Assembly (NCBI GenBank): GCA_963281255.1
Contig: OY725491.1
Coordinates: 6,002,857 to 6,066,856, forward strand
Length of the DNA: 64,000 bases
DNA from: Aphrocallistes beatrix
Taxonomy: Eukaryota; Porifera; Hexactinellida; Sceptrulophora; Aphrocallistidae
Direction of reading: 5' to 3'
Below are positions 60,536 to 64,000 of the stretch, piece by piece; position 1 is the stretch's first letter, and every line of letters begins with the position of its first letter. Made by a program: the position numbers and the translations under genes. The notes under the pieces were generated by a model. The model searched no databases, had not been told where the DNA came from, and saw only the letters and a list, made by a program, of their open reading frames with translations.

Positions 60536-61723
60536 ATGGATTGTAACCAAAGCACGAGTTTTGGAAGTCAATCGTCGAGAGAACTTGGTAATAATAATCC
60601 AAGTACAATCTCAAATGTAAATTTTGAAACACCAGAAGATACGCCTCCGAAAGGACAGAATGAAAGTAGCAAGGAAAGCGCAGTTAGCGTTGTAAATCTT
60701 GATAAATCAACGAACGAAATAATTCCGAAAGAAGCCCAATCTAAAATTGAACCAAAACCTCTTCTTATAAATAATATAGCAACGATGCTCGCTGGAACCA
60801 ACATAATCGATCCTACAAAATATGGAAGCTGTGAAGTTAGTTGGAATGATCCACACCTCCAAGTGCTACCCGGACTAAACATACTCGCTGTGTGTAGAAA
60901 TATTGATTGCAAATTCCATTTGAAAGATGTAATGTGCCCAAAGGGAATCTATCCAGAAAATAATGGGTACTGTCCCTTCGACAAGGAGATTCATAAGGTC
61001 CATTGTCCCGTGTGCAAGCAACGAATTAAATTTGACAACTCGTTTGGATACTGTTTCTACCAATGTAAATTTGAAATAAAGTACATGCTAGATAACAATA
61101 ACAGCGGGAAGCTAAACATGGAAGCATCAAACAATACGCTTATATTCGCTAAATGTAGCAATAGTATAAGCGGCCATTTGCAATACCTAGAGCTACAATT
61201 TTATAAGTGTCACACCACTCCACTCCCTACCCCCTCTCTACACCTACCCATCAGTGGAGGGGCGAGTAATCAACCGACTTTCGTTCCGATAGAATTCTAT
61301 GACGTTACAAATGAAAATTGTTTTAGAACAAAAGAATTCTCTTTTAGTGTGACAGATTATGGGAGAGTGTGCAAGGGAATTAATTTTCAAGCTGAATGTA
61401 CTAATAATCCTAGCTGCATATCGATAAAGGCATCTGACAGTGTTTATATTCAGATAGGAATGTGTGGAGACGACGGAGGATTGTGCCCAGTTCGGACACA
61501 AATTACGAAGATGTTTTGTCCTGCTTGTAAGTGCAAAATCCCTTCAAGTAATTGGAGAAATATGGTCTTCACGGACTGTACAGCCAATATTGAATGGGCG
61601 CTAGCAAGTGATGAAGACACCCCTGGGACCACAGAAATCATCGTTCCAAGTGGAAAATGTTATAGAGCGAAAACAATTTGCGAAATAAAGGAATATTCGT
61701 TCCTTAATGTCAAGTTAAAATAG
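60536..61723 (+). CDS. double cysteine-rich domain protein, member 1 of the right-end family
   Basis: An intronless 395-residue protein. Residues 1-90 are disordered. Two tandem cysteine-rich modules follow: the first, about 112-190 (GLNILAVCRNIDC then HCPVCKQRIKFDN and YCFYQCKFEIKY), and the second, about 260-370 (KGINFQAECTNN, FCPACKCKIPSSNWRN, DCTANIEWAL). The shared pattern is GxNxxAxC..C, then CPxCKxxI, then FxxC, which suits a zinc ribbon. Between them, residues about 222-242 match the end of the ubiquitin-like domain of the two neighbours (PSLHLPISGG versus LSLHVPIRGG). So this member seems to have lost the rest of that domain and gained a second cysteine module. I recall this cysteine pattern from uncharacterised proteins of other eukaryotes, some with ubiquitin-like parts, but know of no function. 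Confidence 0.78.
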   Translation: MDCNQSTSFGSQSSRELGNNNPSTISNVNFETPEDTPPKGQNESSKESAVSVVNLDKSTNEIIPKEAQSKIEPKPLLINNIATMLAGTNIIDPTKYGSCEVSWNDPHLQVLPGLNILAVCRNIDCKFHLKDVMCPKGIYPENNGYCPFDKEIHKVHCPVCKQRIKFDNSFGYCFYQCKFEIKYMLDNNNSGKLNMEASNNTLIFAKCSNSISGHLQYLELQFYKCHTTPLPTPSLHLPISGGASNQPTFVPIEFYDVTNENCFRTKEFSFSVTDYGRVCKGINFQAECTNNPSCISIKASDSVYIQIGMCGDDGGLCPVRTQITKMFCPACKCKIPSSNWRNMVFTDCTANIEWALASDEDTPGTTEIIVPSGKCYRAKTICEIKEYSFLNVKLK

Positions 61724-62250
61724 TTTTAATGTGCTGGACACCTAGCATCAGAAGAACAGCTAAGTTGAGTATTGTTAAATAGATTTATTCAACAGAGAAC
61801 TTCCTTATCCCAGTAGTCCTAGCCAGTAGCTCCAATAGTCAGTAGCTTCATGTATGTAATATCGTATAGGAAAGTAGATGTATCTTATTACTCGTATATT
61901 AGGTAGGGTAAATTATCTTAGAAATTAATGTTCTAACACTATGACCCATGTACATGGAAACGATATTTTGGGCGAATTTATATAAAAATTATTAGCACCA
62001 AAAAGGAATACGCAATATTATTGTTGCAATAAATTAGTATTTGCAATTTTTGGACGTTCCATTAAAACAAATATTAAGTAATGAATATAATATATGTATA
62101 TGAATCAAACTTTGCTCAGGATCGGAAATTCTCCGTACAAGAACAAATAATAATGCAGCAGGTTAAGGTTAACGCTCTCTTTCTCTCTCTCTATATATAT
62201 GTACAATGTATTATCTGAATTAAATATTACATACAACTAGCATACTTGCA
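61724..62250. other. spacer between family members 1 and 2
   Basis: AT-rich, with CT-rich and TA-rich simple stretches at 62175-62200. The last 40 bp before the member 2 ATG (ATCTGAATTAAATATTACAT, then CTAGCATACTT) are conserved upstream of member 3, so they probably belong to a duplicated promoter. Confidence 0.5.
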
Positions 62251-62961
62251 ATGCGACAGAAGCGGATCCTACGCATAGAGCTGTCTAGAGGCAGAGGAGG
62301 GAGTGTGTACGTGAGTGTGTCTCCTTCTGACTGTGTTCTCAGCATCAAACACAAACTAGAAACTCTCACAGGCATTCCTACTCTCTCCCAGACTCTCTAC
62401 TATGCTGCTACTCCACTCTCTGACTCCACTCCTCTGCACGAGTTCTGCCACACCGCTCCAGTCCCTACCCTCTCTCTACATGTACCCATCAGGGGAGGAG
62501 CGTGTAATCAATCGAGTAAACTTTTCGATTCGATAAAGTTTTATGATGTCACAAATAAAAATTGTTTTGAAACAAAAGAATTTTCTTCCAGGGCGCCAGA
62601 TTATAGGACAGTTTGCAAAGGGATTAATCTTGAGGCGGTGTGTGATAATCCTAGATGTAGATCTGCAAATGACAATGTTGTTGATATCCAGCTAGGAATG
62701 TGCACAAATAAGGGAGGCTATTGCTCCATTCGGAGAGCAGTATCAGATATGATTTGCCCTGCTTGTAACTGCAAAATCCCTTCAAGCAATTGGAGAAACA
62801 TAACCTTCACCAACTGTACCGCGACAATTGAATGGGCATTAGCCTGCAACGAACAGATCAAGGGAAGTGTAGAACTCATCGTTTCAAGCAATGAATATAA
62901 ACAAGCTAAGACCTCGTGCGAAATGAAGGAATACGCGTATCTTGATGTGGATGTAAAATAG
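62251..62961 (+). CDS. ubiquitin-like domain with Ile-Arg-Gly-Gly end fused to a cysteine-rich module, member 2
   Basis: An intronless 236-residue protein. Residues 1-83 align with ubiquitin along their length: SVYVSVSPSDCVLSIKHKLE matches LEVEPSDTIENVKAKIQ, GIPTLSQTLYYA matches GIPPDQQRLIFA, and LSLHVPIRGG matches LHLVLRLRGG with Gly-Gly at 82-83. The chain continues into a cysteine-rich module (CKGINLEAVCDNPRC, CPACNCKIPSSNWRN, NCTATIEWALAC) that should bind zinc. Ubiquitin and many ubiquitin-like modifiers are made as precursors cut after Gly-Gly, so cleavage and conjugation are conceivable; equally it may be a permanently fused adaptor. The neighbour on each side is a relative in the same orientation. 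Confidence 0.82.
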   Translation: MRQKRILRIELSRGRGGSVYVSVSPSDCVLSIKHKLETLTGIPTLSQTLYYAATPLSDSTPLHEFCHTAPVPTLSLHVPIRGGACNQSSKLFDSIKFYDVTNKNCFETKEFSSRAPDYRTVCKGINLEAVCDNPRCRSANDNVVDIQLGMCTNKGGYCSIRRAVSDMICPACNCKIPSSNWRNITFTNCTATIEWALACNEQIKGSVELIVSSNEYKQAKTSCEMKEYAYLDVDVK

Positions 62962-63369
62962 ATATTCTTGCTCGAGGTATTTAACCAGTAATTTTAGTGT
63001 GTATCTTATACAAGTAATTAGGTGAACATTATAGACTAAGTTAGCTAAGCTCTTAGAGACCTTGCCTGTCTCCAGTAGTTCTAAGCTCAGTGCTTTAGGC
63101 ACTATAGCTCATGTTCTGTATTATACTGTAGATGTGTGAATTGAGATTGGTTACTGTAGGTGAGATAAATTGTTGTTAATCATAGTTACTTGCTTACTTT
63201 TACTGTGACAATGTACTATTCATTATCTGAATAAAATATTACATACAGTCGAAATCGGGTTATTTTGACACCGGGTTTTTTTGTCCCATTGGGTTATTTT
63301 GTCGTCAAGTCAGTGTAAAAATTGTTTTATTCATACGTACGTATGTATATACGACTAGCAATACTTAGA
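62962..63369. other. spacer between family members 2 and 3
   Basis: The promoter-proximal sequence of member 2 is repeated here, interrupted by an insertion at 63246-63350. The 3' flank after member 2 (CTTGCCTGTCTCCAGTAG) faintly resembles the flank after member 1, consistent with whole-gene tandem duplication. Confidence 0.5.
63246..63350. mobile_element. repeat insertion splitting the member 3 upstream sequence
   Basis: Compared with the member 2 upstream region, about 105 bp are inserted after ATTACATAC and before CGACTAGCAATACTT. The inserted piece starts AGTCGAAATCGGGTTATTTT and contains three GGGTTATTTTGTC-like repeats, like one end of a Tigger-type element. A clean inverted right end was not found. 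Confidence 0.6.
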
Positions 63370-64000
63370 ATGCGACAGAAGCGGATCCTACGCATAGAGC
63401 TGTCTAGAGGCAGAGGAGGGAGTGTGTACGTGAGTGTGTCTCCTTCTGACTGTGTTCTCAGCATCAAACACGAACTAGAAACTCTCACAGGCATTCCTAC
63501 TCTCTCCCAGACTCTCTACTATGCTGCTACTCCACTCTCTGACTCCACTCCTCTGCACGAGTTCTGCCACACCGCTCCAGTCCCTACCCTCTCTCTACAT
63601 GTACCCATCAGGGGAGGGGCGTGTAATCAATCGAGTAAACTTTTCGATTCGATAAAGTTCTATGACGTTACAAATGAGAATTGTTTTGAAACAAATGAAT
63701 TCTCTTATAGTGCGCCAGATTATAGGAGAGTGTGCAAAGGAATCAATTTGCAAGCCGAATGTAATAATCCTAGATGCACATCCGTAAGGAGATCCGATGT
63801 TGTTATTGTTCAGATAGGAATGTGCACAAATAAGGGAGGCTATTGCTCCATTCGGAGAGCAGTAACAGAGATGATTTGTCCTGCTTGTAACTACGAAATC
63901 CCTTCGAGAAATTGGAGAAACATACTCTTCACCAACTGTACCGCGACTATTGACTGGGCATTAGCATGCAACGAAAAAATCAAGGGAAGTGTAGAACTCA
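63370..64000 (+). CDS. ubiquitin-like/cysteine-rich protein, member 3, 3' truncated
   Basis: Runs off the right edge after 210 codons. Residues 1-83 differ from member 2 by a single residue (Lys to Glu in IKHELE), again ending IRGG. The cysteine-rich part is clearly more diverged: NLQAECNNPRCTS for NLEAVCDNPRCRS, and CPACNYEIPSRNWRN for CPACNCKIPSSNWRN, so one non-paired cysteine is replaced by tyrosine. The paired CPxC motif and the NCTATI cysteine are kept. Confidence 0.82.
   Translation, partial: MRQKRILRIELSRGRGGSVYVSVSPSDCVLSIKHELETLTGIPTLSQTLYYAATPLSDSTPLHEFCHTAPVPTLSLHVPIRGGACNQSSKLFDSIKFYDVTNENCFETNEFSYSAPDYRRVCKGINLQAECNNPRCTSVRRSDVVIVQIGMCTNKGGYCSIRRAVTEMICPACNYEIPSRNWRNILFTNCTATIDWALACNEKIKGSVEL

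What the first reader, a model, noticed from the sequence alone, without database searches (positions are those of the whole stretch)
60536..64000. Tandem family of ubiquitin-like proteins with a Gly-Gly end fused to a zinc-type cysteine module
Members 2 and 3 begin with a domain alignable to ubiquitin over its whole length, ending LSLHVPIRGG, and continue into a cysteine-rich module. Seen directly: the alignment, the Gly-Gly at residues 82-83, and the tandem order. Established: ubiquitin, NEDD8, SUMO and ribosomal-fusion ubiquitins are cut after Gly-Gly. Inference: these may be precursors of a lineage-specific modifier, or fixed fusions where the ubiquitin-like part recruits ubiquitin machinery. 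A cluster of such genes that changes fast in the cysteine part would suit a defence or regulatory role.
Basis: partly seen in the sequence, partly recalled or inferred. Interest (0 to 1): 0.78.

Follow-up and report, generated by a model that had tools for sequence, protein, structure and literature searches.

The report
Ubiquitin-like cysteine-module fusion gene family
This genome carries a family of genes in which a ubiquitin-like leader ending in Gly-Gly is joined to an unnamed cysteine-rich domain; the junction looks built to be cut, and the same domain turns up in Chlamydia-like bacteria.

Summary
Window members 2 and 3 are ubiquitin-like (UBL) domains ending IRGG, joined to a cysteine module. 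Member 1 is an in-frame fusion of two modules around a UBL remnant. The cluster runs past the window (14 modules in 13 ORFs). In the whole genome I found 14 intact UBL+module ORFs on five contigs (a lower bound). Off C4 and C14 the UBLs are 15-28% identical to member 2's, yet Gly-Gly is present in 14 of 14. Tandem copies share a nearly identical UBL reading frame (DNA 96-99%) while their modules have drifted to 42-88%. Three neighbours lack the UBL and start with Met where Gly83 would be. The module reached no Pfam or NCBIfam cut-off. It has clear relatives in 6 of 232 genomes of the phylum of a Parachlamydiaceae MAG, fused there to ubiquitin-LRGG, U-box, PARP or patatin domains. Best reading: a cleavable ubiquitin-fusion precursor, built like Ub-eS31, that releases a UBL and a cysteine-module protein. 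Cleavage, conjugation and metal binding are unproven, and conjugation by the ordinary ubiquitin E1 looks doubtful. Both structure predictions failed. New variant of a known kind.

The parts
60536..60814 (+). Member 1 (P0001), variable low-complexity N-terminal part, as in the other 'A-type' genes of the cluster
   Evidence: no Pfam match there
60815..61207 (+). Member 1, A-type cysteine module
   Evidence: module HMM hit; alignment
61208..61261 (+). Member 1, remnant of the UBL 3' end (CHTTPLPTPSLHLPISGG); 61 of 72 bases identical to member 2 from here on (the 72 bases run 18 past the remnant)
61262..61723 (+). Member 1, B-type cysteine module and stop
   Evidence: alignment
62251..62499 (+). 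Member 2 (P0002) UBL domain, ends IRGG; Gly-Gly codons 62494-62499
62500..62961 (+). Member 2, B-type cysteine module and stop
63370..63618 (+). Member 3 (P0003) UBL domain, ends IRGG; Gly-Gly codons 63613-63618
63619..64000 (+). Member 3, B-type cysteine module, cut by the window end (complete in locus L009 2476-2940)

Best explanation
These genes encode ubiquitin-fusion precursors. A ubiquitin-like leader ending in Gly-Gly precedes a cysteine module, and a deubiquitinase-type protease cuts after Gly83, as in the ribosomal fusions Ub-eS31 and Ub-eL40. The cut releases (1) a UBL and (2) a module protein starting at Ala84, which is the working product. Shown by sequence: homology of both domains, the invariant Gly-Gly, the non-proline residue after it, UBL-less paralogues starting at the cut site, and homogenisation of the UBL frame. 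Inferred: cleavage itself; that the UBL serves mainly as a removable folding or expression leader and only perhaps as a modifier; that the module binds metal through C-x4-C and C-P-x-C and acts as an adaptor, as its fusions to U-box, PARP and patatin domains in Chlamydiota suggest.
For: Gly-Gly in 14 of 14 intact UBL+module ORFs (C4 x4, C14 x3, C12 x1, C20 x5, C15 x1); of 81 UBL columns filled in at least ten rows only Met1, one Leu and the two Gly are invariant. The residue after Gly-Gly is Pro in 0 of 14. The five fixed UBLs of this genome that I looked at (not a survey) lack Gly-Gly at the end: the first UBL of four two-UBL proteins on C10 ends VRAG, and the UBL inside a C11 protein has none. 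Three of three UBL-less B genes on C4 begin Met-Ala at Gly83-Ala84, aligned by eye. UBL DNA is 96.4-99.2% identical between C4 copies (dS 0.015-0.047) and 97.6-98.8% between C14 copies (dS 0.030-0.095); the modules of the same nine pairs are 42-88%, with dS above 1 or undefined in 8 of 9. A Chlamydiota genome, G227, has Ub-Ub-LRGG-module; its second unit is 73% identical to ubiquitin. A free UBL on C1, two exons joined by me, ends LPGG plus a four-residue tail, the layout of a modifier precursor (recalled).
Against: No cleavage, expression or mass data. Two of three chlamydial UBL+module proteins lack Gly-Gly (L075, L077), so the architecture can live as a fixed fusion. Position 72 is Pro in 7 of 14 and Arg in only 2 of 14, which argues against charging by the ordinary ubiquitin E1 and perhaps against ordinary deubiquitinases. 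By my estimate the 14 members are about 8 independent lineages. Structure predictions failed, so the fold rests on sequence. Whether the UBL-less B genes lost a UBL or never had one is unknown.
Confidence: 0.58

Rival explanations
1. Fixed fusion: the UBL stays on and recruits ubiquitin receptors, the proteasome or E2/E3 enzymes, as in UBL-UBA shuttle proteins; Gly-Gly is a relic.
For: Two chlamydial UBL+module proteins have no Gly-Gly (L075, L077), and the module is also fused to a U-box there.
Against: A relic should not be the best kept part of a UBL otherwise down to 15% identity; the five fixed UBLs looked at in this genome have no Gly-Gly; UBL-less paralogues start at the cut site.
Confidence: 0.25
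2. Dedicated modifier system: the UBL is cut free and conjugated by lineage-specific E2s, with the module as a specificity factor.
For: 29 E2 stretches and 14 UBL stretches within 0.32 Mb of C1, and 18 E2 stretches on C7:223564-390021; a free UBL-GG gene beside an E2 gene.
Against: No E2 stretch lies in the C4 cluster (one search lists C4 only at 432997-434493). The tail differs from ubiquitin at Arg72 in 12 of 14. 24 ThiF stretches do not by themselves show extra E1s.
Confidence: 0.15
3. Chance or assembly artefact: short tandem copies misassembled, ubiquitin likeness accidental.
For: Member 1 is an odd in-frame fusion.
Against: Same architecture on five contigs and in Chlamydiota; significant matches to ubiquitin; purifying selection on the B2-B3 module pair.
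Confidence: 0.02

Closest known systems
Ub-eS31 (RPS27A), Ub-eL40 (UBA52) and FUBI-eS30 (FAU) fusion precursors
   Same: N-terminal ubiquitin-like unit, Gly-Gly junction, small partner downstream, concerted evolution of the ubiquitin part (passages of PMC8122580; the FUBI-eS30 example is recalled)
   Different: The partner is not ribosomal: a module-only profile gives 15 weak PDB hits, none ribosomal. Some ubiquitin-eS31 alignments of the full profile run on into eS31 and gain a few bits; I judge that chance. The UBL is highly diverged, and the leader is homogenised while the partner diverges.
Other ubiquitin fusions, incl. Ub-NiSOD of algae and ubiquitin-zinc-finger fusions
   Same: Ubiquitin joined to non-ribosomal partners; zf-AN1 and zf-RRN7 partners are reported (PMC6332867 abstract; PMC8122580 passages)
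   Different: Those partners have Pfam names; this module reaches no Pfam cut-off
Chlamydiota proteins carrying the same module (L075 and L077 of G001, L080 of G227, L082 of G158 and others)
   Same: Homologous module (profile comparison E 8e-24; all eight chlamydial loci read are hit by the animal module HMM); Ub-LRGG-module in G227
   Different: Also fused to patatin, ankyrin and PARP and U-box domains; 2 of 3 UBL versions lack Gly-Gly; the seven chlamydial modules in the tree group apart, with modest support 81/93
Polyubiquitin genes
   Same: Concerted evolution of ubiquitin sequence (passage of PMC8122580)
   Different: Here the homogenised units are leaders of separate genes with unlike upstream flanks

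Membership tests
Type I ubiquitin-like modifier | beta-grasp domain homologous to ubiquitin | tested here: met
   Sequence homology only; fold predictions failed
Type I ubiquitin-like modifier | Gly-Gly at the mature C-terminus | tested here: met
   Gly-Gly at the UBL end in 14 of 14 intact members
Type I ubiquitin-like modifier | proteolytic exposure of Gly-Gly | not testable with these tools
   Needs protein data
Type I ubiquitin-like modifier | activation by an E1 and conjugation | not testable with these tools
   Indirect signs are mixed: E2-rich genome; Arg72 in only 2 of 14
Ubiquitin-ribosomal protein fusions | partner homologous to eS31, eL40 or eS30 | tested here: not met
   Module profile against PDB: 15 hits up to E 10, none ribosomal
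Ubiquitin-ribosomal protein fusions | N-terminal ubiquitin-like unit joined through Gly-Gly | tested here: met
Zinc ribbon / zinc finger | two conserved cysteine knuckles | tested here: met
   Cysteines 48, 53, 86, 89 and 106 of the module are invariant across 22 rows
Zinc ribbon / zinc finger | bound metal | not testable with these tools
   None
Any named Pfam or NCBIfam domain (for the module) | match above the curated cut-off | tested here: not met
   Module-bearing proteins scanned: module region matched nothing over a cut-off; PHROGs and PADLOC were not scanned

The most novel reading that the evidence does not exclude
The cysteine module is an unnamed adaptor domain of the ubiquitin world, shared by an animal and by Chlamydia-like bacteria that live in eukaryotic cells. 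In both it can be delivered as a Gly-Gly-cleavable ubiquitin fusion. In this animal the leader is kept uniform by gene conversion while the modules diversify, as one arm of a lineage-specific expansion of UBLs and E2s.
Probability: 0.3. Interest if true: 0.85.

Novelty: new variant of a known kind. Interest (0 to 1): 0.63.

Why it matters
Ubiquitin is only rarely fused to proteins other than eS31, eL40 and itself, and why evolution keeps such fusions is called a mystery (passages of PMC8122580). Here one genome offers modules with a UBL leader and modules without, starting at the same residue, which allows a direct test of what the leader does. An unnamed domain shared between a eukaryote, probably an animal, and intracellular Chlamydiota, next to ubiquitin-type domains in both, would point to a shared host-side partner.

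Tried and rejected
Viral relatives of the module: four scans of viral contigs confirmed none; plasmids none. Solved structures for the module: best E 0.043, nothing convincing. Structure prediction: both jobs failed, so no fold search was run. A donor copy elsewhere for the identical UBLs: the UBL DNA matches only the seven known places (the tool warns that a DNA search can skip common words). Selection on silent sites alone was judged unlikely to give dS 0.015-0.047 beside saturated modules; gene conversion was not tested with a dedicated program. Literature: the listings of searches (several cut to the first 8 or 20 papers, seen as titles and abstract starts) showed no paper on a UBL-Gly-Gly fusion to this module. 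PMC4209131 (Chlamydiae ubiquitination families) has 0 occurrences of 'ubiquitin-like', 'PARP' and 'zinc' in its main text (a word search only). I recall, from no call, similar cysteine modules behind ubiquitin in ciliates, rotifers and Naegleria; no collection with eukaryotes was at hand to check.

Species of the window: not identified. 'Animal' is my guess from neighbours: a C2-domain protein that looks like Unc13, WASH subunit 7, a mitochondrial carrier, an ABC transporter (Pfam; the name Unc13 is recalled) and a CARMIL-like protein seen by eye. None of these is proof.
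Full report
What is there. The window is C4:6002857-6066856 of an assembly of 100.5 Mb in 28 contigs, a eukaryote by its introns and genes, probably an animal. At its right edge lie three ORFs on the plus strand. P0002 (62251-62961) and P0003 (63370 onward, cut by the window) start with an 83-residue UBL ending VPIRGG and go on into a cysteine module. P0001 (60536-61723) has a variable N-terminus, a first module, a UBL remnant ending PISGG and a second module. 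From the remnant's Cys codon on, 61 of 72 bases are identical to member 2 (the last 18 lie past the remnant), while the 30 bases before it match in only 6. It looks like a deletion that fused an 'A' gene to the middle of a 'B' gene.

The cluster. In the 30 kb fetched from C4:6064000 the array goes on to about C4:6079900. A module HMM built from family members finds 14 modules in 13 ORFs, window included, 4 of them with a full UBL. Two gene types mix: A (variable N-terminus plus module) and B (UBL plus module, or module alone). UBL-bearing and UBL-less module genes also lie together on C14 and C12.

The family in the genome. Searches with P0002 (59 matches) and with a C20 member (67 matches) include some plain ubiquitin genes. 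They give UBL+module ORFs on C4, C14, C12, C20 and C15, single-module genes on C3, and proteins with many modules on C2, C18 and C10 (nine module stretches in one 1094-residue piece). Counts are lower bounds, as the tool says. Fourteen intact UBL+module proteins were aligned; P0001 was left out because its UBL is truncated, though it keeps Gly-Gly.

Gly-Gly. All 14 end the UBL in Gly-Gly directly before the module: IRGG, VKGG, LRGG, LEGG, ISGG or LLGG. Of 81 UBL columns filled in at least ten rows only Met1, one Leu and these two Gly are invariant. Identity to P0002 is 87-99% on C4 and C14 but 15-28% elsewhere. The 14 rows are perhaps 8 independent lineages, my estimate. As a contrast, the first UBL of four two-UBL proteins on C10 ends VRAG, and the UBL in a C11 protein with E2 and U-box domains has no Gly-Gly. 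I did not survey the other ubiquitin-type hits of the genome (150 scored) for this.

The homogenised leader. Within C4 the UBL DNA of four genes is 96.4-99.2% identical with dS 0.015-0.047; within C14 three genes give 97.6-98.8% and dS 0.030-0.095. The modules of the same nine pairs are 42-88% identical, with dS above 1 or undefined in 8 of 9. Between C4 and C14 the UBL is 88.0-91.2% identical. Upstream of ATG, ungapped 50-base blocks have at most 24 identical bases, though B2 and B3 look alike for a few bases by eye. In ungapped 30-base blocks identity is 30 of 30 just before the junction (bases 211-240), 19-22 across it and 5-9 after it (bases 271-300) in three of four pairs shown; small gaps in the module exaggerate that fall, and B2-B3, the youngest pair, stays similar. 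The UBL DNA has seven places in the genome and no outside donor was found. Gene conversion of the leader, as in ubiquitin genes, is the natural reading; it was not tested with a dedicated program.

A natural cut. Three of three UBL-less B genes on C4 start ATG GCT where UBL-bearing genes read Gly83-Ala84 (aligned by eye). The module is thus made both behind a UBL and alone, from the same residue.

The module. Eight columns are invariant over 22 modules: G, C, C, V, C, P, C, C. It reaches no Pfam or NCBIfam cut-off and no solved structure convincingly.

Relatives in bacteria. One pattern-based scan of 84,980 species' contigs gave one confirmed relative, a Parachlamydiaceae MAG, L075, with three adjacent ORFs ending in the module: patatin with ankyrins, UBL, and PARP. 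Of 232 genomes of that phylum, 6 have a match at E 1e-4. The animal module HMM hits all eight chlamydial loci that I read, of six genomes, at 5.3e-9 or better except the two weakest fusions: 1.2e-7 for the L075 PARP protein and 3.6e-7 for the U-box protein; a short extra piece in L077 gives only 0.005. G227 encodes two ubiquitin units, the second ending LRGG, then the module, beside the U-box plus module gene. PARP-like domains in G158 and G161 are read by eye. Profile comparison of animal and chlamydial modules gives probability 99.6 and E 8e-24; the G227 module finds the animal family in the whole genome at 2e-12. In a tree the seven chlamydial modules group together (81/93, with long branches), which argues against recent contamination. 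The direction of transfer is open, and no completeness figures were given for these genomes.

Setting. The genome is rich in ubiquitin-type genes: 99 E2 stretches at E 0.001 (stretches, not genes), 29 of them on C1 between 11.66 and 11.96 Mb, where 14 UBL stretches also lie up to 11.99 Mb. I read one of those 14: a free UBL in two exons ending LPGG-YPLS, beside an E2 gene.

Mechanism and limits. I commit to a cleavable fusion (0.58). The shown steps are sequence facts; cleavage, metal binding and the module's adaptor role are inferred. Against a modifier role stands the loss of Arg72 in 12 of 14; that Arg72 is an E1 contact of ubiquitin is recalled. Ub-eS31 gives the model: the ubiquitin part is thought to aid folding and is removed, while in Giardia the fusion is not cut, presumably because of an extra Ala between the glycines (passages of PMC8122580).

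Novelty. Ubiquitin fusions are known and said to be commoner than appreciated (abstract of PMC6332867). I found no report of this partner domain, its spread to Chlamydiota, or a homogenised leader before diverging partners, within the listings named under Tried and rejected.

Noticed in passing
own genome C1:11667106-11988231: A dense stretch with 29 E2 (PF00179) and 14 diverged UBL stretches; the one UBL read is a free precursor-like gene ending LPGG-YPLS next to an E2 gene.
   Followed up: partly
own genome C7:223564-390021: 18 E2 stretches, many in open frames near 1000 aa, with ThiF stretches at 359851-360342.
   Followed up: no
L074 (C11:323400-327000): A 1159-residue ORF with ubiquitin, E2, U-box and zf-Nse matches above cut-off and weaker vWA and SAM matches in one protein.
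   Followed up: partly
own genome C15:555014-584647: At least ten open frames made of diverged ubiquitin units in a row.
   Followed up: no
L073 (C10:4445500-4451500): Four two-UBL proteins ending in CNIL, CCFI or CSIL, CAAX-like ends (a recalled prenylation signal); 2 of 4 single-module C3 proteins read end in CVIL, and a chlamydial module protein (L082) ends in CIIV.
   Followed up: no
L035, L038, L041 (C2), L039 (C18), L037 (C10): Long open frames of up to 1294 residues with many copies of the module in a row.
   Followed up: partly
window 60536-61723: In-frame fusion of an A gene to the middle of a B gene's UBL, leaving only its last strand and Gly-Gly.
   Followed up: yes
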